DNA of 64,000 nucleotides, taken from contig NC_091976.1 of the NCBI RefSeq assembly GCF_036711975.1, forward strand, positions 23,622,001 to 23,686,000, in the 5' to 3' direction. The notes under the pieces were generated by a model. The model saw only the letters and a program-made list of their open reading frames with translations. It did not search any database and had not been told where the DNA came from. A program made the position numbers and the translations under genes. Positions 8,001-64,000 of the stretch are shown here, piece by piece. Position 1 is the stretch's first letter. Every line of letters begins with the position of its first letter. The stretch is from Onthophagus taurus (Eukaryota > Arthropoda > Insecta > Coleoptera > Scarabaeidae).

Positions 8001-11000
8001 AACAAAACTAACCTTACCTAACATACAGTGTCTGAAGACACAGGGCTAAACCCGAAACTTAAAAATATACAACTTAGCGCTGAATAACAATTAAAACTAG
8101 AACTAACACTTGCACTAGAACTATACTCTGTTTTTAAACCAGGAGGAGTAAACGCGAAAGTCAGATTTACACTGGGAAAAATCACCAGAAAATATCACTA
8201 GATATTTTGGCGGTAAATTTAAATTAATAATTATTATTTATTTATTTACTTATTATTGTATTTGAAGTTATGAGTGTATTTATTTCAAAATATAATAAAA
8301 AAGGGTTTAAGAACACAAAATATACAATAATGACACGAAACTGTCGAATTATCAATTACCTAACCTTCAAATTCAAAATTCAAAATTGCCTGTGTGTGAA
8401 CCTTCCTCGCATTCAACCAATCACGTGCAAGGTCAATCTGGTGACAAATTTAAAATACTTCTCCTGGTTTAAAAACAGAGTATAGTTCGGTCGGACTTTT
8501 TTAAAGTTTGCCAGTGGCCAGTGATAGAAATCGACGGAAAAATATTGTAACTAACTCGTATATTAAAATGCGATTAATTATCTCAATAATTAACAATTAT
8601 AAATCTTAAAAATAAGTTAAAATATCTCGATAATTAATCGCCTTCATTAATACACTTGTTGGTTAAATGACTATTTAACACTAATTGAAAAAGTGCATAA
8701 TATGAATAGAAATGAATAGATTATTGCTCAGCTCAGATCCATTATTGTCTAGCATTAGACAAAAACCACGAAATAAATCTATACCACAGAGTAAAGAAGT
8801 CTTAGAAATGCTGATTTCTGCTGAGGCCCACATGGCTGACAAGAATTTTTTTGATGAGGAATCTACTGCAGAATATTCTGATCGCGAATGGAGCTCTGAT
8901 GACGGTATTTTTCATTTTAGATTAGGGTTGAAATATTTTCTAAATAATTTTTTTTAATGTAAAATTGTTTTTTACTTTTATATATGTTTACCAAAAGCCT
9001 AAAACAACTGAAATAAATCAAAATAAACGTTTATGAAATCCTTATTAGAGAAGTGTACAAAAGAAATATTTGGAAATTAGTAACTGCCATAAAAAAATAA
9101 GAAAATTCCTGCTATCTTGGAAAGTTAGATGATGAGATATAACTTTTACAACATCATTTGATAATACTGCATTGATACATAGCGAATAATACTGATGAAA
9201 ATATTTACATTTAAATCATAAAATTTATTTATTCATTAATTTATTTATTTTTATGAAATTACAGACTTCAATAGAAGCAATTTTAGAAGACGTTATCGAA
9301 GCATTAAACAATAAAAATCCCTCTGTAAAATCAGAAACGGCTCTTTTTCTATCAAGATCATTCGCAAAAACCCTCCCAGTTACGTTAAATAAAAAACTTT
9401 TAAAAGCTTTAACCGGCGGCCTAATCACCTTAGTTAATCAGCCAGGTAAGAATAATCTCCTTAAATCATAACCAAAATTTATTTTATTCCAAAAATATAG
9501 ATCCTACCGTTCGAGATAGTGCTTGTGAAGCCTTAGGAACATTATTGAAATTAGTAGGTGAAAAAGCTGTGGGTCCATTCCTTGTTGAACTCGAAAAAGA
9601 TAATTTAAAAATGACAAAAATCCGGGAATGTTGTGAAAAGGCGGTGATATTGGTGAAAGTTCCAGCGGCGAAAAAAGATAGGCAACCAACGAATAAGGCT
9701 CCTGCTAAACCTCAAAGTACGGCTGTTAAGCGTCCAAATACGGCTTCATCGGCTAGTAGTAATGCTAGTACAAAGAAAAAACCTGAAATCTCATCTGGAA
9801 CAGCAACTATTGTAAAATCGAAAGGGAATAAAACAACTAAGGCTGCTCCAGCGAAGAAACCACCGGTTGAAAGGGAATTAAGCGACGAGGAGGTTGATGG
9901 AATAGTTAATGACATTCTACCTTCCGAAATTATTGTGGGATTGACAGATTCGAATTGGAAAACTAGATTATCCGCTGCCGAACAAATGTTAACGAAACTA
10001 CAAGGGATGGATGCTAATATTGTTCCTACACAAGCTATGGTTAAATTAATTGCGAAAAAACCTGGGTTAAAAGATATTAATTTTCAAGTTTTAAAAGTCA
10101 GATTGGATGTTGTTAAATATTTGGCTGGAAATTGTTCGTTTTCAATGTAAGTCTTTAATAATTAATTACTTAATTTAAATTTTTTAATAAAAAAATTTAG
10201 TACAACAGCTTACGCATGTTTAAACGATACAATTGAAAAACTCGCCGACGCTAAAAATGGTGCAGCAGCCGGAGAAGTTTTAACAGCAATTTCGGAAGCA
10301 ACAAGTCTAGGTTACGTTTCCGCCCAAGTTATGGAATTTGCTGTAACTCAAAAAAGTCCAAAAGTACTTCAAGAAGCCCTAAATTGGTTATCAAGTGCAA
10401 TTAAAGAATTTGGATTTGGGTAATTAATCATTTCCTTTATAATTTCTTCAACTAACTTTTTTATTTTATGTAGAAATCTTAACGCAAAAGTCCTCATAGA
10501 AACCGGAAGAAAAGGTTTAGGTTCATCAAACCCGGCTGTTCGAGCAAGCGCGATAACATTCATGGGCGTTCTCTATTTATATATGGGATCGGTCATTTAT
10601 ACATTTTTCGAGAACGAAAAGGCCGCATTAAGAGATCAATTACACGTAGAATTTGAAAAATACGCCAACGAGAAACCTCCATCCCCAATAAGAGGCATAA
10701 CACGTAGTGAGAGTTCAGTGAGTGTTAATAAGGAAGTCGAAGATGAAGATTCCAATTCGGGAACAACAAACGTAGCCGATTTATTACCCCGAGTTGATAT
10801 TAGCCCACTAATTACCGAAACTTTAATTAACGAACTGTCGGATAAAAATTGGAAAATTCGTAATGAAGCTTTAACAAAAATCAATTCAATTATAAAAGAA
10901 GCGAAATTAATCAAACCGAATATAGGGGATTTACCTCAAGCTTTAGAACCGAGACTTTTGGATACAAATAGTAAAATAGCTCAAGCGACAATTAATCTTT

Positions 11001-44527: not shown

Positions 44528-47500
44528 TTACACTTCGACACCCAAAGCGCGATCAACAACGTATTCATATCTTGTCGAAGACGATATTTCCACACTTTTT
44601 TCTTCCGATTTACCTTCAGACTTCGAATACTGATTGTTAATTTCTTCAGGCGGTTTCGAATTATCTTCGGATTGTTCAGGTGGCAAAATTGGTACAGTTG
44701 TATTTATTCTTGTAAAAAATGCCATTTTCTCTCTATAAAAAGTAATAAATAATCATTAATTTTTAAAATTAGTTAGGTTATGTTATGTGTCAAATGTCAA
44801 AATAATTTTTTTAACATTTTAAATTATATTTTTCTACATTTTCTTATCGTTTAGCAACAATTTAAAAATATTTTAATCCAATCTCCATTAATATCAAACA
44901 AATTTAAAAAAAAAATTGTTGATTAATATAAAAGTGACATCCATAAAAAAAAAAAAATGATACCAATTATTAAATTAAATCCCCTAGTTTTATTTTAAAT
45001 AAATTTTACTTCAAGCAATTAAATAAAAGCAATTCAATTATTAATTAATTAATTATGTTTTAAAAGTAATAATAATTTAAAAATATAACTAATTTTAAAT
45101 CAATTAATATACGCCATCTATCGTTATAAATCGTAACTATTAGAACTGTCAAATAATTTGAATTAAAAGAAGATTTTACTTACTTGAAAGAGATAAGATC
45201 AGGTTTTCCATTTCCAGCTTTACTTTTTCTTAATTTATAAATTTCCTTTGAAACCCTCCTTAACATTTTATCAACTTTCTTTTCTTCAGCGGTCCTCATT
45301 AACTTTTCATTTTCAGCTTGGGCGACCAAATTTTGAAATTGTCTATCTTCAAGAACCCAAGCGGCGATTTCGGTGTCGCCTTGTTCTTTTGCTGCTTCAA
45401 GTCGATTTTTTAACTCCCTCAATCGTACCAATTCCGCGTTCAAAATGTGCAATCGGGTCTGTTGCGCTTGCAGATCCAATTCTAAATCTAACGAAGTTCT
45501 CGATGTTGGTGGCATGTGACTTCTTCCACTTTCTGAAGATTTCGTTTGGGTGGAAAGTGTTGCTAAAGAACCCGATTGTTTCCTAAATCTTAATGATCGT
45601 CTTTCCACGGCGTTTCTTTGGAAAGGATTTGTTCCTTTTCTATACAAAGGCATTGCGCTGTCGCTGTCGCTTCGATTTAATTTACATATGTAGGGATTTT
45701 TTGAAACAGCTGGCGAAAACGTTTGTGATCTTTTGATATGTCTTTCATCTATCCCGGATGCGTTAATTTTCATCTGTTTTGCGTGTTCGGGATAAAAAGC
45801 GCACTCGGTGTTAGTTTGTTTATCTAAATATTTTTCTTTTTCTTCGTCACAATCTTCAACAACAACTTCTAAAGGATCATTTGGGCGAAATTCAACCGTT
45901 ATTCCTTCTTCCTCCTCTTCATTTTCATCTTCTTCTTCCTCCTCATCAGAATCATCATCTTCGTAATCGAAAAGGTTTGGATTTAAATCTGGGAGGAGAA
46001 GATCTTTTTGGAAACCTGCACAATCTTGATTTCTCGTTAACGTTGACGTTTGAGATGAAATTATAGTTGAGTCATCTGAACTTTCTTCTTTGGTGCCGAA
46101 TTGTTGATGATGCGTTGAATGGTATTTATAAGTTAAGTCAGGTTCTGGTCGCGAAAGATCTTCCGATTCAGGTTTTATATCTTCGTTTGGCGTTTCCATG
46201 AAATGGAGACCGAGAATGTTGTACCACTTCGATGATGGACTTTGCGGGTTGAAATCTGCTAAACTAACTTGGGCACAACCAATACATTTTTCTTGTTGAC
46301 CACCGATTCGGCCCCAAACGTTCATTTGCAAAGTTTTCGTGTAAATTTTATTCGCTGCTATTGTAAAATTAAAAACATCCCCGAAAATGGGTTTTCTTAA
46401 ATCTCGCACTGATCTCGTACAACAAACCGATGTCGAACAAGGTGCTGAAGGCAACAAAGCTATTTTAATATACACTTCTGAATCGTCAGCGATCAGTAAC
46501 GCTGCTAGATTTCTTCCTCTTTCTATACAAATACTCAATGTTGATTCAGCGGTTGTATACTTAACTTTAATTTGAACTTGTGCTGTATCGGAATCATCTC
46601 CGCCGAATAATCCGGATAATCTTTTACGATTCGAAGCTTCAAAAACACCTGAATCACCAGCAACCGATTCATCGCTAACAGCGGCGGAAACTGATCGGGT
46701 GTTTGTTCCGGATGACGATGTTCTTGAAAGAGTTGCTCCTTGAAGTCCTTCATCTTGATCGAGAGTTGGCGGGGGTGTTTCAGAAATTGGGGAAAGTTGA
46801 GGATCACCAGAACTTTCGTACGATAATCTAGACGGCCTTCCTAAGCCACTACCTTGAGACATATTACTGATATTACCACCTTCTAAAAGGTCTGTAAATG
46901 GGGTTAATGACGAAATAATTGGAAGTCGCGATGGGAATAAATTTTGATGGAATTCCGATTCTTTACGATCTCTTTCGATTTGTTCGTAGGATGGTGGCGG
47001 TATCATACACGGTAAATTTTCGTACATGGGTGAGACGGGTGGTGAAACTGATGATAAAGAACTTCTCGGCGATAAAGATGGTTGTGATCGACCTGGAGAT
47101 GGTGTGTTAACTTGCGACGAGTCGTTTCCTTTTAATAAACGTTCGACTCTTCGATGTAAATCGGCCATATCAACCGGTTTATCCATGTTAACCGCCATAC
47201 ATTGAGGACCACCGTAAATATCCGTAAAACTCAAACCGGAACTTAACGATCCTTTGCTACTGGTTGTAGACAACGATCCAAGACTAGAACTACTACTAAC
47301 CGATAACGTACTCGCCGATAACGTTTTTAATTGTGACTCTAATTGCGTCATAGCTCTTAAAGCATCTCTTAATTGTTGTAATAATAATTGTTTTTCTTCG
47401 TGTAATCTTAATCTATCAGCGATTGCCCTGTTACTAATTTCAATCGCTTTGTTAAGATCTTCTTCTAATCTTTTACACTCTAATTGGATATCACACATTT

Positions 47501-50500
47501 CTTCTTTCGATCTAGTTCTTGGTGTTATGCTTCTTAATTCTCTTAGTAGTTGTTCTTTTTCTTGAAATAATAATAAACGATCTTTATCGGATTCTTCTTG
47601 TCCCGGTTGTACTTTCTCCTCCAAATCGGCTAATTTTTGTTGAATCATTTGCACCTTTTTCCTCGCCTCATCATATTCCAATCGCATCTTTGCCATTTCC
47701 GCTAATCTTGTTCCTATCGGTAATAATTCACAGGATAAATCCGTTTGTGAGGCGGTACTTAATTTTTCTTGGGGTAAACTTAGCGTTGAAGCGTCGGGCG
47801 AACTTTCGCAAAGTTGCAACCTTGTCATTTCATCTTTTAATTTCGCCAAACTTTGCATTAAATCAGCTTTTTCTTTCTCCCCGGACGATAAAGATTTTTG
47901 GATGTTTCTTAATTCGTTCATTATCGCTTGAGCTTCCGTTATGCTATAAAACATTCCTTGGTTTCGACTCAATTTTTGACCGACACTCGTTAACGTATCA
48001 ACCCCTCTTTGTGTGTACGTCACTTCGTTTTTGATTTGTTCCAATTCCGATTTTAATCGAGAAACTCTATTTCTGGCCATTGCCACGTCCGATTTTAGAA
48101 GATCCGGATCGTATTTTGTGCTAACGCTACTCGTTGATGAACACACTAAAGATGTTTCAAAAGAGATTTTATTAATTTAATAATTTTTTGATTACTTTAA
48201 ATAACTTACGGCTTGTTCTAGATGTGGTGAGTGTTGCTAAGGCATTGTTAAGATGATTGTATTCGTCTTCGGCGATGGTGAGCCGTTGGGATTTTACGTT
48301 GTAAATGTCTTTTTTGGCCTAAAACAAAAACAAGAATTTAGTAACGTTATTTACCTGGAAAATTAAGGGTCAAAAAAAATTTAAATTATAACTGGATTTA
48401 TCGACGACCTCGTAAAGGGGGGGCATTTTAAGCAGGACCTCGCGATGGAATCACGTGTTAAAACTTTTTTGTCACAACTTACAAATCCGTAAGGATATCG
48501 AGGTGCATAAACAGCGTTTCCTCTCCTATAAGCACCGGGTTCGAGGGGAATCCCCACGTCGGCAACGACGTAAGAAGCGGGAAGAGTGCTGTAAGCCGGT
48601 CGCGGATGAACATTTTTCGTTAATTTTTCAACGTCGAAGACACCGGGAAGCGTGTGGACCCGGAGGGCGTAGGCGTCGCTGTCGAGAGGAAGACGAACGT
48701 AGCACAAGGGCCACATCCTGTCCCTCTGGAGGGCCGTGTCGTACTGAAGAAGAGCCGAACGCGCGGGCCTCGTGGGGCCCCTCTCGAGTAGCGGCCTTGG
48801 AATGTCCTTCGCACCCCGAGGGGCATACGGGGACGAGAGGTTGGGCCCTCGGCCCGGGCCACTTCTCTAATTTCCGTGTGCATTCTTCTTCTTCTGCTTC
48901 TTCAACACCGAAAGCAGCTCAAGATATATTTATATTTTTTTATCACGCTCATCGAGATAAAATAAAATTTTTTAAAGAAAGTTGTAACTAAAATTGTGTA
49001 TGTGCCAATTTTCACGTCATCATCAACGCAAATTTAGTCAGAGATGAGATTTATACAAAGTCGATAACGAAATTTTGTACTTTGAACTGTTTTTGTTAAT
49101 TATAATTGAGTTAAAAATAGAAATTTGATTTTTTTTTGTATTTATAACAGAAAAAATTATTAATTAGAAATCAAAAATTTTGAACACTTCGTTATTGATA
49201 TTAATAAATCAATAATTATTAATCGGTTCAAATTCTATTAATTTAGTGTTTTTATTTACAAAGTATATTGATTCAAAACAAATTTTTTTAGTTAGTTTAT
49301 ACCAGATTTAAAGTACTCTGTTATTATAAAAGATTATATCTAACAGATTAGCTATTGAGGATCAACTCATAATCATCTAATTAGATGATGAAATGAAATA
49401 AAATTAAATGAAATGAAAAGAAAGAGTTAATATCCTCAACCACGTTGTTTTCGGGGCAGCTGCGCATTCCAGAACGCGGACACAGGCGGAGGAACCGCGA
49501 CGACGACGACGAAGAAATGGGTAAGGAGTTGTAGGGGAAGCGGGGGTGTATGAGAAGCTTGGTCCGAAGCAAAACAAAAGCGCGGGCCCCAAAACATATA
49601 ATAACATTCGGCGAACGAAGAACGGACGGATGGACGAACAACCGAGGGGGCCGAGCTGAAGAGACAACGGGACGCTGGAAGAATGCGAGCGAGCGAGCGC
49701 CCCGGGAGGGGGCCGCTAATATGCTCTCGCGCGCGGAGTTATGGAATGCGGACCCGTCGTTGTGGGAGAAGAAGAGGCGGTAGCGGCACGCGCGCATTCT
49801 ACCAAAAAGAATGTGTCATTTCTTGGGAAGATATAAAACGAAAATGTAATTTGTACGGATAAAAGAAAGTTATTTAATTTGAATTTGGTTGTTTGTGCAT
49901 CTTCACGCAGTCAAATCGTTTATGCCATTGTTATTCATCGGACTTAATTCGTTGTCAACGGCTGGGGGGCCGCGCCCTACCGTACTAAATTCTCCCCATC
50001 GCATTCCACACATTCATACCAAGTTCTTTAAAAACCATCCCCTTTAAATCGTCTCAACACCAAAAAATAACACTCAAAACGTATTAAAAATAATTTTTCA
50101 ACTTTGTTATATGTACTCTTCGCGTGCGTCCTAATATGTTGTTCCTCGGCTGTCTCTTTCCGTAACAACCTGTTGAGGCGAGCGGGACCCCCAGGCTTGG
50201 GTAGAAAGAAGGAAGAAGAAGGGGGGAAGAAGGTAAAAGATGATGATGAGGGAAGGAAGGGGGGACCATCGTCGTAAGCGGTGGAATGCGCGTTCGGCGC
50301 GCATCGGCGTCGATCGGTGGAATGCAATGCAACGGCGGGCCGCCGCTGGATCGTGCGGCGTAACACAGGTAGCTACTGCAACACAAGGATCCGTCCGATT
50401 TTCGCCCTCTCCCCCCCGCGCGAGCAGACCCCTCCGGTTCAGAGTCGGGCATCTGCGCGCGCGATCCAAGGGGGATTCGAAGAGTAACGACAGAAGGACC

Positions 50501-53500
50501 TCAGATGACAATCCCCATTAATTGTGTGCGCCCAAAGGAAATCTCGCAAAACTCAAAAGCGATTCTTAAAAATCAAAAACGGGCGACGAATGCGAATCCT
50601 TGCCTCGCATCGTTTTAGAGGGGCGGGGGCGGCGCGGTGGTACGATCGTTCGAAATTGGCGTCGCGAAGAAAAAGGCGACGCGGGCAACCTCGACATTCC
50701 GATGTTGGCACGAGCCGGCCCGCTCCCTCGCCCCTCCCACCCCCTCGGGGGCCCCGACCCGCTGCTGCTCACCGCCGCGTTTTGTTGTTTGTTTGCCCGA
50801 ACTCTTCCCCTTCTCTCCCTCTCATCATCGTCCTCTCGTAGTTCTCATCTTCGCTTCTACTCTTCGCGCGAAACACCAAACAGCTACCGCTTCTTTAGAT
50901 TACGAATAATCGTTTATGTATTACAAAAATTTAGACGTCTAAATGACTATTAAGTATTTTATACATAATCATATAAACGTGGTAGATTCTTGATAATTTT
51001 TTCTGTTAATCTAAAATTCAGCGAAGTACTTCAATTCAGAATCAGATTCAATGTTCTTCTCCTTTAATGTTTTAAGCTAAAAAATTATTGAAAAAGTTAT
51101 CAAAGTAAAAATAGTGCTTCGAAGGATTTTCAAGACTATGTTCTTCATTGTAACAGTTGTATCATGTCATACCAATGGGCTACAGAAGACATTATAAGCA
51201 CTGATATTGTGCTATCAATGCCGACAGATTTGACAGAATCACTACCAGTGATTAATGTTTGATATCAGATTGGATCGAAAATGAAAATTTTCTGGTTCAG
51301 GCAGATATTTGCATGTTCACAGATGGATCAAAAACGCCGGAAAGGGTCGGGGCAGAACTATACTGCCAGACACTTCGGATTAAGCAAGCTATAGCCTGGG
51401 TACGTACTGTACTGTATTTCAGGCGGAAGTATTTAGGCTATTGATATAGTGCTAAAATCCTTCTTGAGCGAGCGGTGAAGAACATGACAGTGCCATTTTT
51501 CTCAGATAATCAAGCCGCTCTCCAGGCGCTGCAAGCCGTGAAAACGGTGTCGGCTCTATTGGTAATGTAATGTAATACTGGAGCTAACGTTAGTACTAGA
51601 ACTAACACTAAATCTAGAACTAGAAACATTTGGGTTTAACCGCACGTCTCTTAAGACGGCTAAACCCGAATGATTCTAGTTCTAGGTTTAGTGTTAATTC
51701 TAATTTTAGTACAATAAAAATATACAATCTTACGTTGAGTACTAACTAAAACTAGAACTAACACTAGACCTAGAACTAGAATGTTTCTATTTCTAGGTCT
51801 AGTGTTAGTTCTAGTTTTATTTCAATAAAAATGATTTTGATGTTTTTTGAAAAAGTTTCGATGTACTGCTAAAAAAACTTTCAGGTGTCAAAGTCAACTT
51901 TAATTTTATTATTATATTCGTACTCCTTATAAAATAACCGTTAGAATGAGTCCAAACTTGATGCATTTATCTCAAAAAACAAAAAAAAAGTTTGAATAAA
52001 AAATATTATACCTGAAGTATAATACAGGGTGCCCATTATGTATGGAATATACTATACCGGATGTGCCTCAGAAGTGGCTCACCCCAATGAGGTACTTGAC
52101 GATCTCAGATATCTAGATTAATGGTAATGATTAATTTTTAGTAATAAACAATTTTTCCATTTTTCTCAAAAATTTTCTGATGTAAGGATACAAAAATTTT
52201 ACGCCATCGTAAAGAAAAAAGTAATCTTTATCATTCTGAATTAAAAACAATTGAAGGCAGTCTTATTATGGCAAATAAAATATTAAACAACTTTTGTATA
52301 AAATGTTTTTTATAAAGTTGATACCTACCAAGATATATACTATATTCCATACATAATGGGCACCCTGTATATTATGAAATACATAAATATTAATACCAAC
52401 CTTAATTTTTAAGATTTTTTCTTATATTTTCGATAAATTTTAAATGTATGTATCATGTTTGGATTCATTTTAAAGGATTTTTAATAAAGATTGCAAATAT
52501 GTCAAATTTGACATTGACTTTTCTAACCGGAAGTTGACCAAATATGCAAACTCACACTAGCATTAGCGTTGTCTTAGAATAACATAGTGAAAAACATAGT
52601 CTTAAAACACCAAAGCAACAATTTCCAACACACACAAATACATATGCTTTGGTGCTTTGGATGAATGATAACCAGAAGCAATAAAAATCTTATAAGTTTT
52701 TTCTGCACGTCAAAGATACTCAAATTTGTTTCTCAGTTCTTCATATTTGTTCTTGTTTTTGTTCAGCTATAATTACATTTTCATTATCGGGTTCTGTATC
52801 TTCCAATATCTTCGCATTTGAAATCATATTTACCATATCCGGAGGAAGTTCAACAATATCATGAAAATTAGGGTAACTCAAAATCATCTTTTAATTCTTG
52901 TTGAGTGCATTTTTTTGTAAATTCTTAAAATACCACTGGAAATATGTAAAGCGCCTTTCACACGATCAATATATATTGTCAATAACTAAGTATTGACAAT
53001 ATTATTGAACGTGTGAGGAAAAAGATTGACATATTGTCAATATTAAAAATATTGATGGGGTGGTTTGACGAAAACGAAAATATTCGATATATTGGCAATA
53101 AATATTGACAGTCTGAGAGAGATATTGACAATCCTACATTAGTAGGATAAAATAACCATTAGAATAAGTCCAAACTTGACGCATTTATGTCAAAAAGTTA
53201 GAAAAAAAATATTAAACCTGAAGTTCGTAACAATGAAGTTAGCAAAATATAATAAATATATTATGAGATACATAAATATTAATACCAACCTTAATTTTTA
53301 AGATTTTTTCTTATATTTTCGTTTTTGTGACAAATTTTAAATATATGTATCATATTTGGATTTATTTTAAAGGATTTTTAATGAAGATGTCAAATTTGAA
53401 ATTGACTTTTCTAACCGGAAGTTGACCAATATGCAAACTTACACTAGCATTAGCATTGTCTTACAATTTCCAACAAACACAAATACATTTGCTTTGGTAT

Positions 53501-56500
53501 TTTGGATGTATAATAACCAGAAGCAATAAAAATCTTATTGTTGCTCAATTCTTCATATTTGTTTTAGTTTTTGTTCAGCTATAATTACATTTTCATTATC
53601 GGATTCTGTATCTTCTAATATCTTCGTATTCGTAATCACATCTACCATATCCGGAGGAAGTTCAACAATATCATGAAAATTAGGGTAACTCAAAGTCTTC
53701 TTTTAGTTCTTGTTAAGTGCATTTTTTTGTGAATTCTTAAAATACTACTGGAAATAATTAAGAAATAATGATTTTAATGAATATAACGTTCTCACGGTGT
53801 AATAAGATTATAAATTTGAAAATAAAATGTCTTCATTAGATTTCTTATATGCACTTTCGTAATTGCAAATTAGTTTTTGCTGTGTAATGTGAGAACATTG
53901 TAACTAACAACGAATATGTCTTGTAAAGAGATAGGGGGAAAATGTAAAGTGTGTGATTTTTAATTTTTTTCTATAGTATGTATGCTGTTATAGCGCGGCA
54001 TCGTCCGCGTTCCGTCCCGTACGATCTGATGCATACCCGAGGGGCAGCCATGCGTGATTTGTGAGGCATACGTTGGAATGCGAACATTGTCTGGCCGGGA
54101 GGGAGTGGCCGCGGCCGAATAAGGCCCGAAGGACTCGGCAATTTACCGAAACTCCTATCCTGAACAGAACCGACTCTCAAACTCCACTACTCACTCACCT
54201 CCAGTACGTACTGGGCGATCTCCAGGTAATCCCGTAACATCGCTTCCTGAATCGCGCGCCATTCCTCCCTTGGATCTTCCAATTGCGTGGTCTCTAAAAA
54301 AATAGAAAAAAAAAACATTTTAATTTTCAACAATCTTTGTAAAGCAATAAAGTTGTTATGGTATGTCAAGTTGGTTGCCTAAAGAGTTGGGGAGAATTTG
54401 AAAAGGAGAAGCAGCTACAACGTACGGCAAAAGGTGCATAACATTAGAGGAATGCGCCCGAGGCCTTGGCGTTTCTATCTGCGCGAACATAACTTATTAA
54501 GAGATGCCTTACGAGTCAATGTCAACCGGGATGAGTGTTTACACGGTGCCTTATTAACTGTAGAGGGCGTGCGCGGCGCTGCGCAGGAATGCGACCTCGC
54601 GGCTACAAAACCGCAACCGAGTCGTCCGTTTTTATTGCCCCCGGAGTGTACGCCACGTTTTCGATCGATCATTTACCGTGATACTATAAAAGTTCAACCT
54701 AAAAAAATAAAAGCTTCCTTTTATTCCCTATTAAAAAAAAAAGAGACAAAAAGAAATCGAAAGTTAATCCCAATTTTGATTTTAACATCACTTTATTATT
54801 ATTATTTTATTTGATAGTATTAAAGATAGAGATAGTATTCGATTAAAGTTGTGAATGAAACTCGACCCCAACCTAAGAAGAGATTGCGTCGTTGCCGTCG
54901 TTAAGCTAGAAGCCGTCGACTCGAAATCCGTTACTATATCCGCAAAACATTTATTATCCCGTAGAACCGAGGCGCGTTGCGCTTAGAAAAACGGTAAGAA
55001 CGATTGCGGATCCCGCGTTCTCACCAACTCGGCAAGAAGAACTAAATCGCGACCGAGCAAAAAAGACTAATTACGCTAGGCGAATGAGTCCCGAGTATCG
55101 AAGCAGACGATGATTAGTACCGAAACCGTGACAAATAACAAATTACTTCTTTTCATATATTATTAAGGCATTTTCTCAATATAAATATATTTTTAAATCA
55201 TTATCATCATCCTTTGTAGCGTATATAGCCACGCGTTGGAATTTTATCATAAAAGTGTTATCTCTCGCCATGGCAAACATTCATCGATACATACTTTGTA
55301 GTATCGATATCGCGCGTTTCTTAATGACATTCCGCTGCGGTGACATCACCAGGTGCACCTTCGGACAACGACGACGACGACGACGACGCACGCACCACGC
55401 TTTATTAAAACCATAGTAGAAAGTGTTTTTAAACAACAATATGCCGGCCGCGTACGCGGAATGACTCTCACCTATACCATATGGCGTTGCAAAATCGTTG
55501 TTACATTTTCGCGACAGCGACATGTAAATCTCTACACAAATATTTTTAGTATGTTAGAACGTGTTCTGAATACAACAATGAACGCAAATTTTATTGTTAA
55601 TATAGTATGGTTGTTGTAATGCTTTGAATAATTGGGTATTGTGTGGGATTCTACAAAAACTATTTTCTTAGTATTTAATTATGATGACCAGAAATTAAGC
55701 AACAACAAAAAAAAAACACGAGAATATAGATTTTGCTTTTTTAAAAAACTGTTCTGTTTATATATATGCAGAAAGAAGAATAAGGAGCTGCATGTAAAGA
55801 ATCTGAATCGAATTATGAACCATGGTTGGGGATTTCTGATGGTGTACAGCCCTTTTCTGCTGCTATACCAGAATTTGGCAGCAACTGACGTTTCTACTAA
55901 GATAAGGAGTCAAACACATAGCTTACAAATTATGTTTCTGGATTTGATGTAATTCCAATTTTTGCTTCCAACACATTCACCAAGCACAATTTGGACAGTT
56001 TTGTGGCTATTAACACAGTGCTCGGTTGCTATATACTAATTACGCCTTCCTCAAGAGTGGTTACGCTAATATGGCATGAACGGATATCATGAGTTATATA
56101 TAAAGAACAGTAAAAAAACGACTTCCAAATGCTCCCAGTAACGTTTAATACGTCCTAACATCTATCTCTCAATACTTTACGTTGATACCGGTTTTTAGAT
56201 GCATCCGAAACCAGCACATCCAATGAGGCTGACATCAGCTCCTGAAGGTTCAAAAAGTGCCCCAAATACCTGTTATATTATAATATTCTCTAAATAGATT
56301 ATAAATTTAAAGATTCCAATATGTTCCGAATGTCTGTCAATGCATCTCAATGGTTTACAATTATTAGGGTTGTCTCAATTGATATCTTATACATTTATTA
56401 GCTTCCAAATACTTCCGTGGCGTTTAGGACATTTCAAAGTCTTCTACTATTAAATCTAAACACCTTTCGTCATTATTAATGTCAGTTGCTCCCAAAACCT

Positions 56501-59251
56501 TTCGCGTTTAAAATAATTTTTCTCAGTATAAACAATATGACTCTGAAAAGCTTTCAATAGCAAGTGATAAGTTGGTACTATTGAATTGCTACAGTTTTAA
56601 AGGTCCCAGTTGCTCCAAATATCACCATCATTTGGTTCCATTATACTGTAATGTTTCCCACTCACCTCGGATAGTATCAATGATGAGGGAGTGCTCGAAA
56701 TATCTTTTGCTTATAATGGTATAATATAAGATAATATATATAATATAATGCTATAATTATAATTTGTCTCCAGAGGATTACTATACATAGCAATAACCCC
56801 TTTCCCCAGCCTCCCCCGGCTTACTCTTCGTTTCCTCGTTGCCACCAACTCCACCAATCTATTTACTTCCTCCGCCATCTCCCCCAGCATCTGTCTCCAG
56901 TCCATCACCTCCTCCCTCAACTCACTACACACCACCAGAAAGTGTAAAGACTCCCTGCCCGTCCAATATCTATTCTATCGATACCTTTCCTTTATCTCCG
57001 TTCTTTTCTCATGCATTCCCGCATCCCTATCCCTGCCCTCCAGTTGTCTCTACATCTTAATCCCATCCTCCCTCTCTTTTCCTGCCACCTCTTCCGTTGA
57101 ATACCCCACCGTTCTGGACTATTCCACCCTTTCTCGCTGCCCACAACGACTCATTCGTACTTTAATCTCTCTGCGGCACTCCCCCAAGATGTTACAACAC
57201 AACCCAACCTTCATTTCTTCTCCTCGGATTATATACCCCGGCGTCTCATCCTCTAACAGCCCTTGCTCCCCGCATCCCTATATCTCCATCCCATACATCA
57301 TAACGCTTTTTATCAAGCTCTCAAACATTATTCTCCTTTTTCCCACATCTCTCACTTTCACTGCCATCATTAAATCATTTTTGTATATTGTACATTTTTA
57401 CTACAGGGTCCGGCAAAATGATCTCCCACATTTTGCAACACCACTGTGCTCGTATCACTGAAGAGAGGGAGAGTTTAGCGTATTTGGTTGGTAGCTCACG
57501 CCTTGCCACTTCAGTTGTCGTCATGAATTGGACGTGCCTTCATTATCGAAACATTTATGAAAAGTAACGAATCTGTAATTACAACGCAAAGAACTTTTCG
57601 TACTCACTTCGTGCTTCGTAGACATGATCCGGTTCTATATCAAAAAATAATACCGTTGTGGGTTTCAATTCTAGAGCCACAGGTTCACCCTTAAAAAGAA
57701 AATCAACTGGTAGACTCAAAAGTGCTCTGACACCTGAAAATGTTGCAGCTGTAAGAGAAGCGGTTGAACGATCTCCTACCCGTCCATCTGCTAAACATGC
57801 CTCTGCTTTGCGTTTGTCAGATCGTTCTGTGAGAAGCATTTTACACGCCGATCTGAAATTCCACCCATACAAAATGATGATTGTGCAAGAACTTAGTGAA
57901 TGGGACTGGAAAAATTGCAGAGTATGTTCCAACGATATTCTTCAAAACGTCCCACAAAATGCTATTTTGATAACGAGTGACGAAGTTCAATACAGCAATA
58001 CGTCAGCAATTACAGGAATATTCACGAGCAGCAATATGCCAAGAAATTACAGGAATATCGCCCCAAATTGCTGGTCGAGTGATGGAAACTTTCAGAAATC
58101 AGTATATCGAAAAAAATGGTCGCCACTTCGATTCTGTAATTTTCAAAATAAAAACAAATGGCATAGCATACATTTTCAGTTAATAAATAAAAAGTTTAAA
58201 TAGCAGTACAATGCCGTTTTTATTAAAGATTAAAATGTGGGAGATCATTTTGCCGGACCCTGTAGTTTGTATTCTAAGTATGTGTACTTCCTTGATCAGT
58301 CCTCCTTCTAACCCCTTTACAAAATTCCATCATGTTCGTTTTGTTTCCGTTCAACTCCAAATTCTTCCCCCTTAAATACCTTTCCAGAGACCACATCATT
58401 ACCCCCATCTCATCCACCTCTCTCGCGATCACTACCAAGTCATCGACATACTATCAGTATGCCTTCTATGTCTGCAGTGTATAAAACAAACAAGGCTAGA
58501 CTAAGCGGATATCCCTGCCTCAATCCTCTTGTCGACCAAAACATTTCGTTTAGTTCTTCTCGCACCTTTATTCTCTTGCTTATAAAAATACCCAGTTGCG
58601 AATTGATTGCTTCTCAGTATCTTGCGGTGTCCCGAAAATAATTAAGAATGACTCTCAATACATCCCAATATTTTCCACCAACTCCCAATTACACCATAGG
58701 ACACACAATTACTTCAAATTTGTCTTAATAACTCGTAACCAATAATGAGTAAGAATGGCTCACAATATCTTACTCGCTATTAAGAGGAATAGGATTCTTA
58801 TTGGTCTCTGTATCTTAGCAATATTCTTAAAGACGCCAGGAAACTAACTTAAATGAACTCCTAAAACGTACTAGGAGCAAATTTCTTTTGGTGGAAATCG
58901 TTTGTTTCTAATGAGCAAACAAGTATATAGCCGTAATTGAAAGGATTTGTTTCTTCAATAGATTTACTCTGATTATGACTACGCTAATGCTTTAAAAATT
59001 AAGGAAGCGTCAACATAATTCGAGACTCTAATTAGAGGAAAATGCAACATGTAGTATGGATTTCCTTAATTAACATAACCTAGAATCCAATACTTTAGAA
59101 ATGATCTTTTAAGTTATTATTTTGCAATAATTAAAGCTTACCATTAACATGATTGATATAGTAGTGTCCGATTTGGCCATCGTAGGCTTCCTCCCAGCCA
59201 ACGGGCAACTCGTTCCCAATGCAATCCGCGAATGTCTGCGGTTTCGTAAAC
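44528..59251 (-). CDS. kibra: Kibra (WWC1 family), Hippo-pathway scaffold, 5'-partial
   Basis: An apical scaffold acting with Merlin and Expanded to activate Hippo/Warts and restrain Yorkie. Visible exons in transcript order: 59251-59142, 54293-54199, 48318-48210, 48145-45184, 44732-44528; phases join, giving about 1159 residues. WW2 is split over the first two ([20 protein letters not shown] .. [11 protein letters not shown]). It has Leu instead of the second Trp, as is usual for Kibra WW2. WW1 is outside the window. Coiled coils follow, including [20 protein letters not shown]. The C2 domain is at about residues 523-648 of the big exon, with an acidic run (residues 727-753) after it and another coiled coil near the end. 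The last exon begins EKMAFFTRI, as in vertebrate KIBRA, but is longer and ends GVEV, a possible PDZ ligand. The neighbouring last-exon ORF is therefore not a separate gene. Confidence 0.93.
48400..48870. promoter_or_regulatory. GC-rich island 1 in kibra intron
   Basis: GC-rich and CpG-rich in an AT-rich intron, about 80 bases upstream (transcript sense) of the exon at 48318. Long ORFs on both strands here are probably a by-product of composition. A TEAD-type site TTGGAATGTCC lies at 48797-48807. It may be an alternative promoter or an enhancer. Confidence 0.45.
49440..49800. promoter_or_regulatory. GC-rich island 2 in kibra intron, GGAATGCG sites
   Basis: Contains CGCATTCC at 49463-49470 and GGAATGCG at 49743-49750, plus the weaker AGAATGCG near 49682 and 49791. 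A (CGA)n run sits near 49498. Confidence 0.5.
49960..50900. promoter_or_regulatory. GC-rich island 3 in kibra intron, GGAATGCG sites
   Basis: The largest island. CGCATTCC at 50000-50007, GGAATGCG at 50283-50290, GGAATGCA at 50319-50326, and CATTCC at 50695-50700. It has many overlapping ORFs in different frames with no recognisable protein family. CpG density is high throughout. Confidence 0.5.
51160..51570 (+). pseudogene. Non-LTR retrotransposon RNase H relic
   Basis: Reads [20 protein letters not shown], the first catalytic Asp region of RNase H in Jockey/I-type elements, then a frameshift and a TVFQAEV-like motif. It is antisense to kibra. Confidence 0.7.
51593..51823. repeat. Two copies of the CTAGAACTAACAC hairpin family
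   Basis: A full copy at about 51593-51715 has the core GGGTTTAACCGCACGTCTCT and CGGCTAAACCC. At about 51748-51823 there is a shorter copy in which the arms meet directly without the GGGTTTAGCC core. This shows the arms can exist as a simple palindrome. Confidence 0.75.
52022..52373. mobile_element. Complete MITE with TACAGGGTGCCCATTATGTA ends
   Basis: The first ~35 bases are an inverted repeat of the last ~35 (ending CATACATAATGGGCACCCTG). Length about 352 bp. A truncated relative is at 34560-34876. Confidence 0.75.
52375..53760. repeat. Duplicated ~520 bp segment around a short TIR-like insert
   Basis: The unit from ATTAATACCAACCTTAATTT to AAATTCTTAAAATACCACTG occurs at about 52387-52935 and again at about 53277-53745. 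The minus strand of each copy reads EELPPDMV followed by KILEDTE and [10 protein letters not shown], so the unit contains a decayed coding end. Between the copies (52950-53150) lies a stretch rich in ATTGACAAT, ATATTGTCAAT and CACACG/CGTGTG inverted words, resembling a small element. Confidence 0.6.
53990..54180. promoter_or_regulatory. GC-rich island 4, directly downstream of a kibra exon
   Basis: Contains GGAATGCG at 54075-54082 and a GC-rich flank up to the exon at 54199-54293. Small ORFs on the minus strand have no recognisable family. Confidence 0.45.
54390..54700. promoter_or_regulatory. GC-rich island 5 in kibra intron, GGAATGCG sites
   Basis: GGAATGCG at 54449-54456 and at 54586-54593. 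The 138-codon plus-strand ORF here (54398-54814) has no recognisable family and ends in low-complexity sequence, so it is not called as a gene. Confidence 0.5.
55260..55540. promoter_or_regulatory. GC-rich island 6 with CATTCC sites
   Basis: CATTCC at 55328-55333 and GGAATG at 55458-55463, with a (CGA)n microsatellite at about 55365-55388. A related GC-rich, site-free stretch lies at 54860-55130. Confidence 0.4.
55640..56700. other. AT-rich kibra intron sequence
   Basis: No element or gene is recognised. Phrases such as CTTCCAAATGCTCCC and CTTCCAAATACTTCC recur loosely, which may be a faint repeat. Confidence 0.35.
56760..57404 (-). pseudogene. Non-LTR retrotransposon, 3' coding part
   Basis: Read on the minus strand: [20 protein letters not shown], then MYGMEI and [12 protein letters not shown], the region after the RT domain in R1/Jockey-like elements. 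The minus-strand sequence upstream (58263-58640) is the RT itself, so the two were continuous before the insertion at 57405-58263. Confidence 0.65.
57405..58263 (+). mobile_element. Tc1/mariner-type element, internally deleted, nested in a retrotransposon
   Basis: Ends are ACAGGGTCCGGCAAAATGAT, continuing CTCCCACATTTT, and the exact reverse complement at the right, flanked by TA on both sides. The plus-strand ORF 57658-58203 has the N-terminal helix-turn-helix region ([40 protein letters not shown]) but lacks the catalytic core, and it ends in a C-terminal piece. It is a deletion derivative with well-kept ends. Confidence 0.8.
58263..58640 (-). pseudogene. Non-LTR retrotransposon RT relic
   Basis: The minus strand reads [20 protein letters not shown] and then [20 protein letters not shown], the catalytic Y-x-D-D box and the following region. 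The 5' side has stops. It continues at 57404 beyond the nested DNA element. Confidence 0.8.
58650..59140. other. AT-rich kibra intron sequence
   Basis: No element or gene is recognised. Confidence 0.35.
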
Positions 59252-59329
59252 CTGTAACAACGAAAGAAGAACGAAACGTGAAAAATGTGTATAGAGTAGT
59301 GTGTAGTAGTTGTGTTTCTTAGCCTCTCC

Positions 59330-59670
59330 TCTTTTATACCGTTACGACGACGACGACTACGACGAAGTTAATGGGCAGCGGCCGGTGGCGCCACCTATTA
59401 GCTCTTGCCGGCGATACCGCCGGGAGCAGGTGAGCCGATCGCGGATTCTTGAGCAAAAGGTCAACATATGCGTGTGCGAATGAATAGTCGACCGAGTTCA
59501 ACTCTTCGGGTGTTCATGTATTGAAGATGGAAGACGCGTTTTTTAATCGATTTGATGAAATCCGCGCGTGAAGATTTTGATACATTCCTCGACGGTGTTT
59601 TTATGTGATAGCAACACCGGAAAACGCCGACATCGAGGTGGTCATAAAAAACGACATTCCGCGGTTGGGA
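59330..59670. promoter_or_regulatory. GC-richer stretch 7 upstream of the WW exon
   Basis: CpG-rich with a (ACG)n run near 59344 and CATTCC at 59583-59588 and 59655-59660. It is weaker than the islands downstream. Confidence 0.35.
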
Positions 59671-59699
59671 CCGATTTTCACTTGGTGAAAATTGAGTTA

Positions 59700-61050
59700 G
59701 ATATATAAAAATAACTTTTGATGATTCCTATTAAAAATATTTTTGGTTGTAATTTCGTAAATGGTTTGATAGGCAATTTTTTATTTGAAATTGCTCAATT
59801 GGTGTGAGTAACAGGAAATCTGTCGATGCAGGCGCGATTTTGGAGTCGTTATTCGGTTTATAAACAGTAATCGAAACCGTTTAATTGCGAATTTCTCTCC
59901 GTACCAACGTGAGTCACGTAGTTTACCACGTTCCTAAACACGAATTCGATTCTATAGAAAATAAATAACAAAATAAAAAATGATTGGGTTTTCGATTGAA
60001 AGGGAATTTGAAAATATTTATTGCTTATCACACCCCTGTGAGTCAGAGTTAATTTTTCAATCATTTAATTCAACTGAATCGTTTATCAGTAACCCGAATA
60101 GAACGCAAATCTGGGACTCGTTTTTTTTCCTTTTTGATACGCCTTGATAAGAATGGAATGCATGATAGTGCTCCCGCCGAATAATCAGTTATTGACATTA
60201 CCCGACTTGGTTATATCGTTTGGTTATAAATAAATTGTTTTGGATTTGTATTTTTTTATTTTTCGTTATCGACGCAAAATTGACGTAAAACCCTTTTTAG
60301 CAGTGTAACTAAAAATATCAAAGATATATCAAACGTAAGAAATATTTCTTATCCTTTCTCATACGATTGACGTAACATATTTTGATAAAACAAACTGAAT
60401 AACATGTTTAGAAAATAAATTTGAAGATTTTTGGTTGCGCATTAAATATATTAATATCTTATAAGTAATAGAAAACAATAGATGGCGCTAATATACAACA
60501 TCAAAAAGCTATATATATATTTATTCCAAATTAGTAGCAAACATTTTTGGCTAAAAGAATGCGATGATATAGAAATCGTTTATAAAAATAAAAATGTTAT
60601 AGAAGTTGGCTAGAGAATAGAGAAAGATGAGAATTAACCTTGAAATTTTTATTGCAAAACTTGGAATGCGCCTAAAAATAGTGCGTTTTGTGTCGGTTAA
60701 CTCGAACGACGACCACGAAAACAAAAACCTCGATAGGTTAAGGTTACTTAAGTATACCAATTTTCTTCCTTATAATTTAATAAATTCCAAGCTTTTGAGT
60801 ATTTTACGAAATCTTATCGTGCCACTTAAAGATAATAATTTTTGTAAAAGAATCAACCTTACGAAATAGTTTATATTAAATATTAGAACCAAAACTAGGA
60901 AACCACGTTAGAAAGTATACGAGACTCGTTTAAATCTACCCACAACTCTGTTCTTATATAACTAATTAATCGTTGTCACGTAATAAATAAATTAGCAAAT
61001 ACATAATAAAAAGTATGTAAACATAGAAAACTGATTTAATGCAATCAAAT
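59700..61050. other. AT-rich kibra intron sequence with isolated GGAATGC sites
   Basis: Mostly AT-rich. GGAATGCA lies at 60155-60162 and GGAATGCG at 60663-60670. TAGATGGCGC lies at 60479-60488. No gene is seen. Confidence 0.35.
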
Positions 61051-61059
61051 TTTTCGACA

Positions 61060-61430
61060 CTTCCTGTGTCATCATCTTCTGTGTGTATCTCCGAAGGAAT
61101 TTCGAATGGTCAAATACGCTGATGATCCAAAAGAGGGGGTCCCCCGCAAGACAAGAAGACGCGAGTGAGAGAGTCTATTTTTATCCGGACTGAGAGCCAC
61201 TCGTGCACTTGTTGGGTTTCCAATTTTAGAAGCCGAATTCCGCCCGTCCGTCGTCGACCGGTCGCCCCGCTGTCCCCGGATCCGGCCCATTCAAGCGGAT
61301 GGTGCGGAGACCCGCGGGTCCAGGGGGCCTCGGGCACATTCCGGGCGTATTTTCGTTTTTGGCCCATAAGGCAATAGCGAGCGGCGCATTCTCCGCATAG
61401 CGACCCACGCGACGATTTATTTTCGGGATC
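61060..61430. promoter_or_regulatory. GC-rich island 8 in kibra upstream intron
   Basis: High GC and CpG in AT-rich DNA, with CATTCC at 61337-61342 and the weaker CGCATTCT near 61384. ORFs occur on both strands with no recognisable family. It may be a promoter or enhancer of kibra. Confidence 0.4.
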
Positions 61431-61549: not shown

Positions 61550-63740
61550 ATGTCTAACGATTTTTATTATTATTTATTAAATTAATTATTAATCTTCATC
61601 AAAATCCATTTAATTTGATACCAAACACGACATATTTTAAACAAAAACTAAACGTTGGAAATAGAGTTTATCTCGAAAAATTGAGATACTCGTCCTAACT
61701 AAATATCAAGTTAATAACTTTATTCGTTAGGAACTCTTTAATTTAATACCAAACACGACCTATTTGCCACAAGAATTTTAAATATTTCGGATTTTTAGAG
61801 ATTTATCTCGAACATTAAGATACTTACTATGATTTTTAACGTTTAAATCAACTCTCTTCACGCCATGTTAATACAGCGGCTTGATATATTGGAGCCCTAA
61901 CCCAACTACGCGCGATTAGAAGAACTAAAACATTGGAGATAGAGTTTATCTCGAAAATTGAGATATCTCATCTTAATTGAATATCAAGTTAGTAACTTTA
62001 TGGTTAGGAATTCTTTAATTTAATAGCAAACACTATCTATCTATTTGCTTATCTATCTACACACGATCTATTTGCCCCAAATATTTTAAATACTTAAATG
62101 AGATTTTTAGAGATATATCTCGAAAATTAAGATACCTACTACGAGATTAAACTCTCTTCACGCCATGTTAATATATGGGTTTGATATATTCGAGTGCCAA
62201 CCTAACCCCACATGATTAGAAGAACTAAAACATTGGAGATAGAGTTTATCTCGAAAATTGAGATATCTCATTTTAATTGAATGTCAAGCTAGTAACTATA
62301 TGGTTAGGAATTCTTTAATTTAATCCTAAAGACGATCATATTTATATTTGGGATTTTTAAAGATATATCTCGAAATTAAGATATCTACTATGATATTTAA
62401 TGTTTAACCATCTCTTCACGCCATTTAATACGTCGGCTTAACATACTCAAGTGCCAACCCAACCTCGCGCGTTTAGAAGAACTAAAACATTGGAGATGGA
62501 GTTTATCTCGAAAAATTGAGATATCTCATCTTAACTGAATATCAAGCTCGTAACTTTATGGTTAGGAATTTTTTAATTTAATACCAAACACGATCTATTT
62601 GCCACAAAAATTTTAAATAAATGAGATTTTTAGAGATATATCTTGAAAATTAAGATACTTACTATATTTGATGTTTAAATGAACTATCTTCGCAATATAT
62701 TAATACATGAGATTGATATACTCGAACCCAACCCAACCTCCAGCGATTAGAAGAACTAAAATATTGGACATAGAGTTTATCTCGAAAAATTGAGATATCT
62801 CATCCTAACTGAATATCAATTTAATAACTTTATTGGTTAGGAACTCATAAATTTAATATCAAACTCGATCTATTTGCCACAAAATTTTAAATAATTGGGA
62901 TTTTTAGAGATATATCTCAAAAATTAAGATATTTACTATGATATTTAATGTTTAAATTAATTCTCTTCGCGACATGTTAATATATGGGCTTGATATATTC
63001 GAGCCTCAACCCAACCCCACGCGATTAGAAGAATTAAAACATTAGAGATGGAATTAATCTCGAAAAATTGAGATACCTCATCATAACTGAAGCTAATAAT
63101 CCATAAATAACCATCCTAAGTAATCCTAAATAAGACTAAATCATCCTAAATAACCTAATTATTTTATTGTATTTGCCACAAAAAATTAAATTATTTATTA
63201 GAAAAACTAAAACATCGGAGATTTTGAAGTTTATCTCGAAAAATTGAGATATCTCATCCTAACTTACTATCAAGTTAGTCACTTTATTGGTTAAGAACTC
63301 TTTAATTTAATCCTAAACACGATTTACATTTATATCTATATTTGGGATTTTTAGAGATATATCTCGAAATTAAGATATCTACTATGATATATAACGTTTA
63401 AACCATCTCTTCACGCCTTTTAATACATCGGCTTAATATACTCAAGTCCCAACCCAACCTCGCACGATTAGAAAAATTAAAACATTGGAGATGGAGTTTA
63501 TCTCGAAAAATTGAGATATCTCGTCCTAACTGAATATGAACTAAGTTTATTGGTTAATTATACTAACATTATTGGTTAAGAACACTTTAATTTAATACCA
63601 AATATAATCTATTTGTCACAAAAAATTTAAATATTGGAGATTTTTAGAGATATGTCTCAAAAATTAAGATCCATACTAACAATAAGATATTTATATAAAT
63701 AATAATAAATATATGATAAATTTAACGTTTAATTATTTCT
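61550..63740. repeat. Degenerate tandem repeat, ~290 bp unit, seven to eight copies
   Basis: Each unit has in order GTTAGGAACTCTTTAATTTA, CACGATCTATTTGCCACAAA, TTTTTAGAGATATATCTCGA, TCTTCACGCCATGTTAATAC, a CCAACCCAACC run, AGAAGAACTAAAACATTGGA and TTTATCTCGAAAAATTGAGA. Unit lengths vary from about 250 to 320. A further partial unit runs from about 63840 to the window end, so the array probably continues. Confidence 0.8.
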
Positions 63741-64000
63741 TTTTACCTTTCGATAAATGTGGTGAAAACGATGTATTAAAAAGATTTTTTTTTTATATCT
63801 CAATTTCTATCTTTAATCTTTATCTCTAATTTTTTTTTTATCGAAACCACATCGTGTTTGGTATCAAATTTTAGGATTTTTAATCGCGATGACTATGGTG
63901 TATAGGAACCTATGTTTAAAGCAAGTTTCCTCATGTCATGTTAATACATGGGCTTGATATACTCGTGACCTAACACAATTAGTTAAGGGTTTATGAAAAG

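What the first reader, a model, noticed from the sequence alone, without database searches (positions are those of the whole stretch)
48799..61342. GGAATGCG (TEAD/Scalloped-like) sites clustered in GC-rich islands of the kibra introns
By hand I count about 20 GGAATG/CATTCC words between 48799 and 61342, against roughly 17 in the preceding 48 kb. The octamer GGAATGCG occurs eight times (49463, 49743, 50000, 50283, 54075, 54449, 54586, 60663) and I noticed none elsewhere in the window; about 0.4 would be expected by chance. GGAATG is the core of the TEAD/Scalloped site. Kibra is a Hippo activator and is reported to be a Yorkie target in Drosophila, so these islands could be feedback enhancers. 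Most sites lie in GC-rich, CpG-rich islands within AT-rich introns, which also suggests preserved regulatory DNA.
Basis: partly seen in the sequence, partly recalled or inferred. Interest (0 to 1): 0.75.

Follow-up and report, generated by a model that had tools for sequence, protein, structure and literature searches.

The report
TEAD-like site cluster in beetle kibra
In the horned dung beetle, the growth-control gene kibra carries an unusually dense cluster of short DNA words that resemble the docking site of the Hippo pathway's own transcription factor, so the gene may be switched on directly by the pathway it helps to restrain; this fits known fly and human biology but is not shown here by experiment.

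Summary
The window is Onthophagus taurus kibra, minus strand. Genome-wide rates predict 0.14 octamers in the interval; shuffles keeping local dinucleotides give 0.30, at most 3 in 400. It is the interval's most over-represented non-simple 8-mer and beats the best word in 23 other segments. All eight read W-GGAATG-C-G, like the TEAD core. Flanks are unrelated, so this is no repeat. Two more lie in the rest of kibra, one 204 bp before the ATG.

The one TEA-domain place found is 75 of 76 residues identical to human TEF-3. Yorkie raises kibra transcription in flies (PMC7895526, passages); YAP1/TEAD1 bind WWC1 in human cells (PMC4546604, passages).

Against: TGGAATGT is not enriched; the octamer is not over-represented genome-wide; 11 kb at a probable Merlin gene have no W-GGAATG-Y; an unidentified locus is as rich in generic TEAD words. 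Conservation, chromatin and binding could not be examined. Best reading: Scalloped-binding regulatory DNA of kibra, plausibly a direct feedback input (0.55).

The parts
49463..49470 (-). TGGAATGCG octamer site, kibra intron, island A
49743..49750 (+). TGGAATGCG octamer site, island A
50000..50007 (-). TGGAATGCG octamer site, between two GC-rich blocks of island A
50283..50290 (+). TGGAATGCG octamer site; TGGAATGCA has its core at 50319
54075..54082 (+). TGGAATGCG octamer site, island B, beside a kibra exon
54449..54456 (+). AGGAATGCG octamer site, island B
54586..54593 (+). AGGAATGCG octamer site, island B
60663..60670 (+). TGGAATGCG octamer site outside the GC-rich blocks; TGGAATGCA has its core at 60155
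48401..50950 (.). GC- and CpG-rich intronic island A (blocks 48401-48975, 49376-49900, 50076-50950), candidate regulatory element
   Evidence: GC and CpG o/e; function inferred
53901..55525 (.). GC-rich island B around exon 54199-54291 (blocks 53901-54325, 54351-54725, 54826-55150, 55201-55525)
   Evidence: function inferred
45180..48146 (-). kibra large coding exon (WWC1 helical hairpin, C2)
48211..48318 (-). kibra coding exon (ends approximate)
54199..54291 (-). kibra coding exon (end of the second WW region; WW label by reading)
59143..59253 (-). kibra coding exon (second WW region by reading); the first coding exon lies beyond the window at the equivalent of 72779-72907
44531..44737 (-). 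kibra last coding exon

Best explanation
The octamers are binding sites for Scalloped, the beetle's TEAD factor, in cis-regulatory DNA of kibra: intronic islands plus a promoter-proximal site. Proposed mechanism: when Hippo signalling is low, Yorkie enters the nucleus, binds Scalloped on these homotypic sites and raises kibra transcription; more Kibra then re-activates Hippo/Warts, giving negative feedback. Shown here: identity of the gene, the cluster, its excess over composition, agreement with the TEAD core and its nearest flanks, and presence of a TEA domain nearly identical to a human one. Reported elsewhere: Yki raises kibra transcription in Drosophila, and YAP1/TEAD1 bind WWC1 in human cells. 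Inferred: binding, enhancer activity and feedback in this beetle.
For: 8 of 8 octamers exact. Expected 0.14 from genome rate and 0.30 by shuffle. Top non-simple word of the interval, better than the best in 23 other segments. WGGAATGCG: 8 seen, 0.08 expected; over kibra's 28.8 kb 10 seen, 0.18 expected. In the first 100 listed octamers, on C1, no 12.5-kb stretch holds more than 3; a negative-binomial fit to the first 100 listed WGGAATGCG expects 3e-6 bins of 11.2 kb genome-wide with 8 or more (rough, not corrected for choice of word). A/T precedes 10 of 11 octamers in the 84 kb read, against 58% genome-wide. Published motif strings TEAD1 CYRCATTCCA and TEAD YCWGGAATGY (PMC10294482, one passage) hold W-GGAATG-Y (TEAD1 with T for W); see also the misfits under evidence against. 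Flanks differ, both orientations occur. TEA matched at one place (two exons, C3), 75 of 76 residues identical to PDB 5gzb_A, named TEF-3. Drosophila: Ex, Kib and Mer transcription is raised by Yki (PMC7895526, passages). Human: KIBRA mRNA rises after YAP induction (PMC5029684, passages); [quoted passage not shown] The Drosophila bantam wing enhancer has seven putative Sd sites, and mutating all seven removes most expression (PMC3764184, passages).
Against: TGGAATGT, also permitted by those motifs and commoner in the genome (12,137), is not enriched: 1 seen (core at 48799, its T one base before the interval), 0.52 expected. Of 12 W-GGAATG-Y in the interval 10 have C, against 30% genome-wide. 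The motif fit is partial: the C two bases before the core asked for by YCWGGAATGY is in 2 of 11 octamers, the G after the octamer asked for by TEAD1 in 2 of 11, AGGAATGCG misses the T of TEAD1, and the third string in that passage, TEAD3 TRCATTCCAG, asks for A where these have G. The octamer is not over-represented genome-wide by a maximal-order Markov estimate (3161 seen, 3329 expected), and genome-wide A/T precedes it in only 58%, below the window's 67% A+T. The 11 kb read at a probable Merlin gene, another Yki target in flies, have 3 GGAATG and no WGGAATGY, though its 5' side was not read. L029, chosen for its octamers and of unidentified gene, has 10 WGGAATGY in 10 kb, slightly denser than the kibra interval. 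No ATAC, ChIP or alignment evidence. In flies Kibra is also controlled post-translationally, independently of Yki/Sd, and transcriptional feedback alone was judged insufficient (PMC7895526, passages).
Confidence: 0.55

Rival explanations
1. The octamers are sites of a different DNA-binding protein that prefers WGGAATGCG and merely shares the GGAATG core with TEAD; kibra would then be controlled by something other than Scalloped.
For: The C-G form alone is enriched: 10 of 12 WGGAATGY in the interval have C, while genome-wide WGGAATGC is 10,878 of 35,896 WGGAATGY; binomial P 2e-4. TGGAATGT is not enriched. Outer positions of the TEAD motifs are mostly not met.
Against: A/T before the core and C/T after it are TEAD features. 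I know of no other factor with this word (recall only).
Confidence: 0.2
2. No function: a chance or compositional cluster noticed after the fact. CpG-rich islands of this genome breed CG-containing words and the reader picked the most striking one.
For: The word was chosen after seeing the data. Under an order-4 Markov model the corrected P is only 0.03. The octamer is not enriched genome-wide. L029 shows GC-rich DNA elsewhere with many TEAD-core words.
Against: Shuffles keeping local composition never exceed 3 octamers in 400 tries. GC >= 0.40 bins of the 17 random loci have no octamer (0 in 18.5 kb) against 5 in 4.0 kb of the interval. Its corrected P is 6e-6 under order 3. It is the extreme word of 24 segments, and it falls on a gene where such sites are expected.
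Confidence: 0.2
3. The octamers are copies of a dispersed or tandem repeat.
For: The interval holds other repeats, e.g. direct copies at 52.4-53.8 kb and a transposon-like element at 57400-58266; three GGAATG sites elsewhere in the window are repeat copies.
Against: The octamers share no flanking sequence beyond the core. None lies in the 20 of 21 direct-repeat families shown, or in the 16 inverted pairs, for 45-64 kb at minimum length 22.
Confidence: 0.02

Closest known systems
Yki/Sd-responsive enhancers of Drosophila (bantam wing enhancer; also expanded, diap1 and cyclin E loci, named in a figure legend)
   Same: Several GGAATG-type sites near a Hippo-pathway gene or target; seven putative Sd sites in the bantam wing enhancer (PMC3764184, passages)
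   Different: There binding and mutation were tested; here only sequence. Here one variant, WGGAATGCG, dominates
Yki-kibra transcriptional feedback (Drosophila) and YAP1/TEAD1 binding at WWC1 (human)
   Same: Same gene and same proposed direction (PMC7895526, PMC4546604, PMC5029684, passages)
   Different: Direct TEAD binding at the human orthologue is already in print, so only the insect cis sites would be new. In my paper searches (listings, plus passages of selected papers) I saw no described Scalloped sites in an insect kibra; this is limited to that library and those terms
YAP-TEAD to LATS2, and Yki-Sd to warts, feedback
   Same: TEAD motifs at a Hippo-pathway inhibitor gene; reported to need TEAD/Sd (PMC5029684, abstract and passages)
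   Different: A different gene; reporter and ChIP evidence there, only sequence here

Membership tests
Direct Scalloped/TEAD-Yorkie responsive enhancer | GGAATG core with the nearest TEAD flanks (W before, Y after) | tested here: met
   8 of 8 interval octamers and 10 of 11 in 84 kb; motif strings from PMC10294482
Direct Scalloped/TEAD-Yorkie responsive enhancer | Outer positions of the TEAD motif strings (C two before the core; G or A after) | tested here: not met
   2 of 11 each for C at -2 and G after the octamer; TEAD3's A is not met by the octamer. These positions are preferences, so this lowers the claim without excluding it
Direct Scalloped/TEAD-Yorkie responsive enhancer | Site clustering beyond local composition | tested here: met
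Direct Scalloped/TEAD-Yorkie responsive enhancer | TEAD-permitted variant TGGAATGT also enriched | tested here: not met
   1 seen, 0.52 expected. TEAD binding does not strictly require this, so it lowers rather than excludes membership
Direct Scalloped/TEAD-Yorkie responsive enhancer | A TEA-domain factor with conserved DNA-binding domain in the genome | tested here: met
   one place, two exons; 75 of 76 identical to 5gzb_A, TEF-3 (that TEF-3 is TEAD4 is recalled)
Direct Scalloped/TEAD-Yorkie responsive enhancer | Same site type at other Yki targets of this genome | tested here: inconclusive
   Probable Merlin: none in 11 kb (3 kb with exons, 8 kb downstream); bantam and warts not located by typed patterns; expanded not sought
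Direct Scalloped/TEAD-Yorkie responsive enhancer | Open chromatin in growing epithelium | not testable with these tools
   ATAC data for O. taurus head horn epithelium exist (PMC10942260, passages; Dryad wdbrv15t8) but supplements could not be read
Direct Scalloped/TEAD-Yorkie responsive enhancer | Occupancy by Sd or Yki | not testable with these tools
   no binding data on hand
Direct Scalloped/TEAD-Yorkie responsive enhancer | Conservation of sites in related beetles | not testable with these tools
   states that the genome has no relatives here; the other DNA collections offered are bacterial, archaeal, viral, plasmid or metagenomic
Direct Scalloped/TEAD-Yorkie responsive enhancer | Reporter activity lost on site mutation or sd/yki knock-down | not testable with these tools
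   experiment

The most novel reading that the evidence does not exclude
Beetle kibra is an exceptionally strong direct Scalloped target with its own site grammar: a CpG-containing form, WGGAATGCG, repeated ten times across the introns and promoter-proximal DNA while the usual TGGAATGT is ignored. This would imply either a distinct Scalloped mode (for instance with a partner contacting the trailing CG) or CpG-dependent reading of the sites, and feedback through kibra much more strongly wired than in flies, in an animal known for plastic organ growth.
Probability: 0.12. Interest if true: 0.62.

Novelty: new member of a known kind. Interest (0 to 1): 0.42.

Why it matters
That Yorkie raises kibra transcription in flies, and that YAP1/TEAD1 bind the human orthologue, is known. 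If these sites work, the beetle locus gives concrete, mutable DNA for that loop in another insect order, in a species whose horn size depends on nutrition. It would allow a direct test of how Hippo feedback strength relates to growth plasticity.

Tried and rejected
Rejected: repeat origin (flanks unrelated); pure GC effect; an RNA-level element (8 + and 3 - orientations among 11, two-sided P 0.23, so orientation gives no support); known structured RNA (0 Rfam matches at gathering score in the window and six loci). GAGAG is mildly enriched in the interval (27 against 17.5 by shuffle, 5 of 400 shuffles reach it); GAF works with Yki in flies (PMC6562424, passages), but the effect is too weak to weigh.

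Led nowhere: bantam by exact 22-mer (0 matches); warts by peptide pattern (0 matches); the gene at C1:704-724 kb (L029-L030) could not be identified. The listings of places for common words looked cut short on one strand, so cluster statistics use only, whose 100 listed places agree with the genome-wide density. The random control set is 17 loci of 10 kb: 20 were asked for, 3 places did not exist; contigs 1-11 were drawn with equal weight whatever their length, so it is not a uniform sample.
Full report
What the window is. The protein of the large minus-strand ORF is 100% identical over 99% of its length to protein kibra isoform X1 of Onthophagus taurus (P0001), whose contig length, 34,988,216, equals that of contig C11 holding the window. 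tblastn of that protein places exons at about 44531-44737, 45180-48146, 48211-48318, 54199-54291 and 59143-59253 on the minus strand; the first coding exon (ATG at the equivalent of 72907) lies 9 kb beyond the window.

The observation. All eight octamers are present as stated and there are no others in the window; GGAATG occurs 19 times in the interval and 19 times before it. Five octamers (49463, 49743, 50000, 50283, 54075) lie in the intron between exons 48211-48318 and 54199-54291; two (54449, 54586) in the next; 60663 in the following one. Three further octamers lie in the 20 kb beyond the window: 65131 in the first coding intron, 73111, 204 bp before the ATG, and 83673 farther out. The span 44531-73300 holds 10, all preceded by A or T. 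Six of the eight window octamers are in GC >= 45% stretches.

Is it chance? Four tests. (1) Genome rate: 3161 octamers in 290.8 Mb predict 0.14 in the interval; WGGAATGCG, 1836 genome-wide, predicts 0.08; observed 8 and 8. (2) Local composition: dinucleotide shuffles of 250-bp blocks give 0.30 on average and at most 3 in 400. (3) Choice of word: among all 8-mers in the interval the octamer ranks 3-5 of 8852 under Markov orders 1-4, behind CGACGA-type repeats and, at order 2, the overlapping TGGAATGC; corrected for 32,896 words P is 6e-6 at order 3 and 0.03 at order 4. With simple words and related flanks removed, the interval's best word (1.8e-10) exceeds the best of 23 other segments, 4.1e-8 and then 4.4e-6; two of the 23 gave no word past the filter, two are kibra's own upstream DNA, and they are 10-12.2 kb long against 12.5 kb. 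(4) GC-matched bins: 1.50 WGGAATGC per kb in GC >= 0.40 bins of the interval (6 in 4.0 kb) against 0.05 per kb in random loci (1 in 18.5 kb). In the first 100 listed octamers, spanning 8.7 Mb of C1, no 12.5-kb stretch has more than 3. A negative-binomial fit to listed places expects 0.002 bins of 11.2 kb genome-wide with 8 octamers, and 3e-6 for WGGAATGCG; this is rough and not corrected for choice of word.

What the words are. Aligned on the core, the eleven sites share nothing beyond the octamer and an A/T before it in 10 of 11, so they are not copies of a repeat. Three TEAD motif strings are printed in one passage of PMC10294482 (that they come from HOMER is recalled): TEAD1 CYRCATTCCA, TEAD YCWGGAATGY and TEAD3 TRCATTCCAG. 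All hold GGAATG-Y. TGGAATGCG agrees with TEAD1 over nine of ten positions, AGGAATGCG misses its T; both agree with W-GGAATG-Y of the second. The fit is partial further out: C at -2 in 2 of 11, G after the octamer in 2 of 11, and the A of TEAD3 is absent. The genome matched the TEA family at one place, two exons 0.5 kb apart on C3; their joined translation is identical to PDB chain 5gzb_A (TEF-3; TEAD4 by recall) at 75 of 76 residues. The DNA-binding specificity is therefore expected to be that of TEAD/Scalloped (inference).

Why kibra. [quoted passage not shown] PMC5029684 (abstract, passages) reports YAP-TEAD control of LATS2, Yki-Sd control of warts, and a rise of KIBRA mRNA on YAP activation. 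PMC4546604 (passages) reports WWC1, LATS, NF2 and AMOT bound by YAP1/TEAD1 and proposes extensive feedback. In Drosophila seven putative Sd sites drive most of the bantam wing enhancer's activity (PMC3764184, passages). A dense TEAD-like cluster in kibra thus falls where biology would put it, which raises the prior well above that of a random word at a random gene.

Results against. The classical TGGAATGT is not enriched (1 seen, with its T one base before the interval; 0.52 expected), although it is commoner in the genome (12,137). Of 12 W-GGAATG-Y in the interval, 10 have C, against 30% genome-wide. The octamer is not over-represented genome-wide: 16,130 x 16,728 / 81,045 = 3329 expected, 3161 seen. 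Genome-wide 58% are preceded by A/T, no preference in a genome of this composition, so the A/T rule at kibra (10 of 11, P 0.02) is local evidence. Generic WGGAATGY is 12 in the interval by core start, 1.5 expected from 35,896 genome-wide. Four stretches of C1 were fetched because octamers lie there: L028 holds one octamer, within a stop-free zinc-finger-like ORF; L029, L030 and L031 hold two each. L029 has 10 WGGAATGY in 10 kb, 1.2 expected, slightly denser than the kibra interval; its gene is unknown. A probable Merlin gene (best PDB match 7edr_A, 'Moesin/ezrin/radixin homolog 2', which I recall as Drosophila Merlin; ezrin, radixin, moesin and human Merlin follow closely) has three GGAATG and no WGGAATGY in the 11 kb read, L032 and L033; its 5' side was not read. 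Kibra is therefore outstanding for one variant of the TEAD word, not for being the only TEAD-rich locus.

Judgement. The reading as Scalloped/Yorkie feedback sites is the best single explanation (0.55) but rests on motif and gene identity. A different factor with the same core (0.2) and a chance cluster (0.2) remain open. The decisive data, ATAC peaks and sibling-species alignments, exist or could be made but could not be reached here.

Noticed in passing
57400-58266: A transposon-like element with perfect 35-bp terminal inverted repeats (57400-57434 / 58232-58266) around a short ORF (57628-58203) with no Pfam match; mariner-like only by recall.
   Followed up: partly
61600-64000: Repeat units at 257-300-bp spacing in the kibra intron, with degenerate copies; tandem array 62150-63091 of period 274.
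   Followed up: no
7594-8024: A 122-bp tandem array carries three of the 19 GGAATG words of the first 48.8 kb; AGGAATGT runs at 122-bp spacing also appear on C1 (397224-398078, 982387-982631), so this family probably inflates genome counts of AGGAATGT.
   Followed up: partly
L029 (G000:C1:704001-714000): A GC-rich (0.44) stretch without a recognised gene, with 14 GGAATG and 10 WGGAATGY in 10 kb: a second TEAD-word-rich locus.
   Followed up: partly
51595-51822: Nested inverted repeats of CTAGAACTA-type words, 36-46 nt arms, 88-95% complementary.
   Followed up: no
48799-61342: CGACGACG-type words (11 copies of the 8-mer in the interval) outrank GGAATGCG in the Markov ranking.
   Followed up: no
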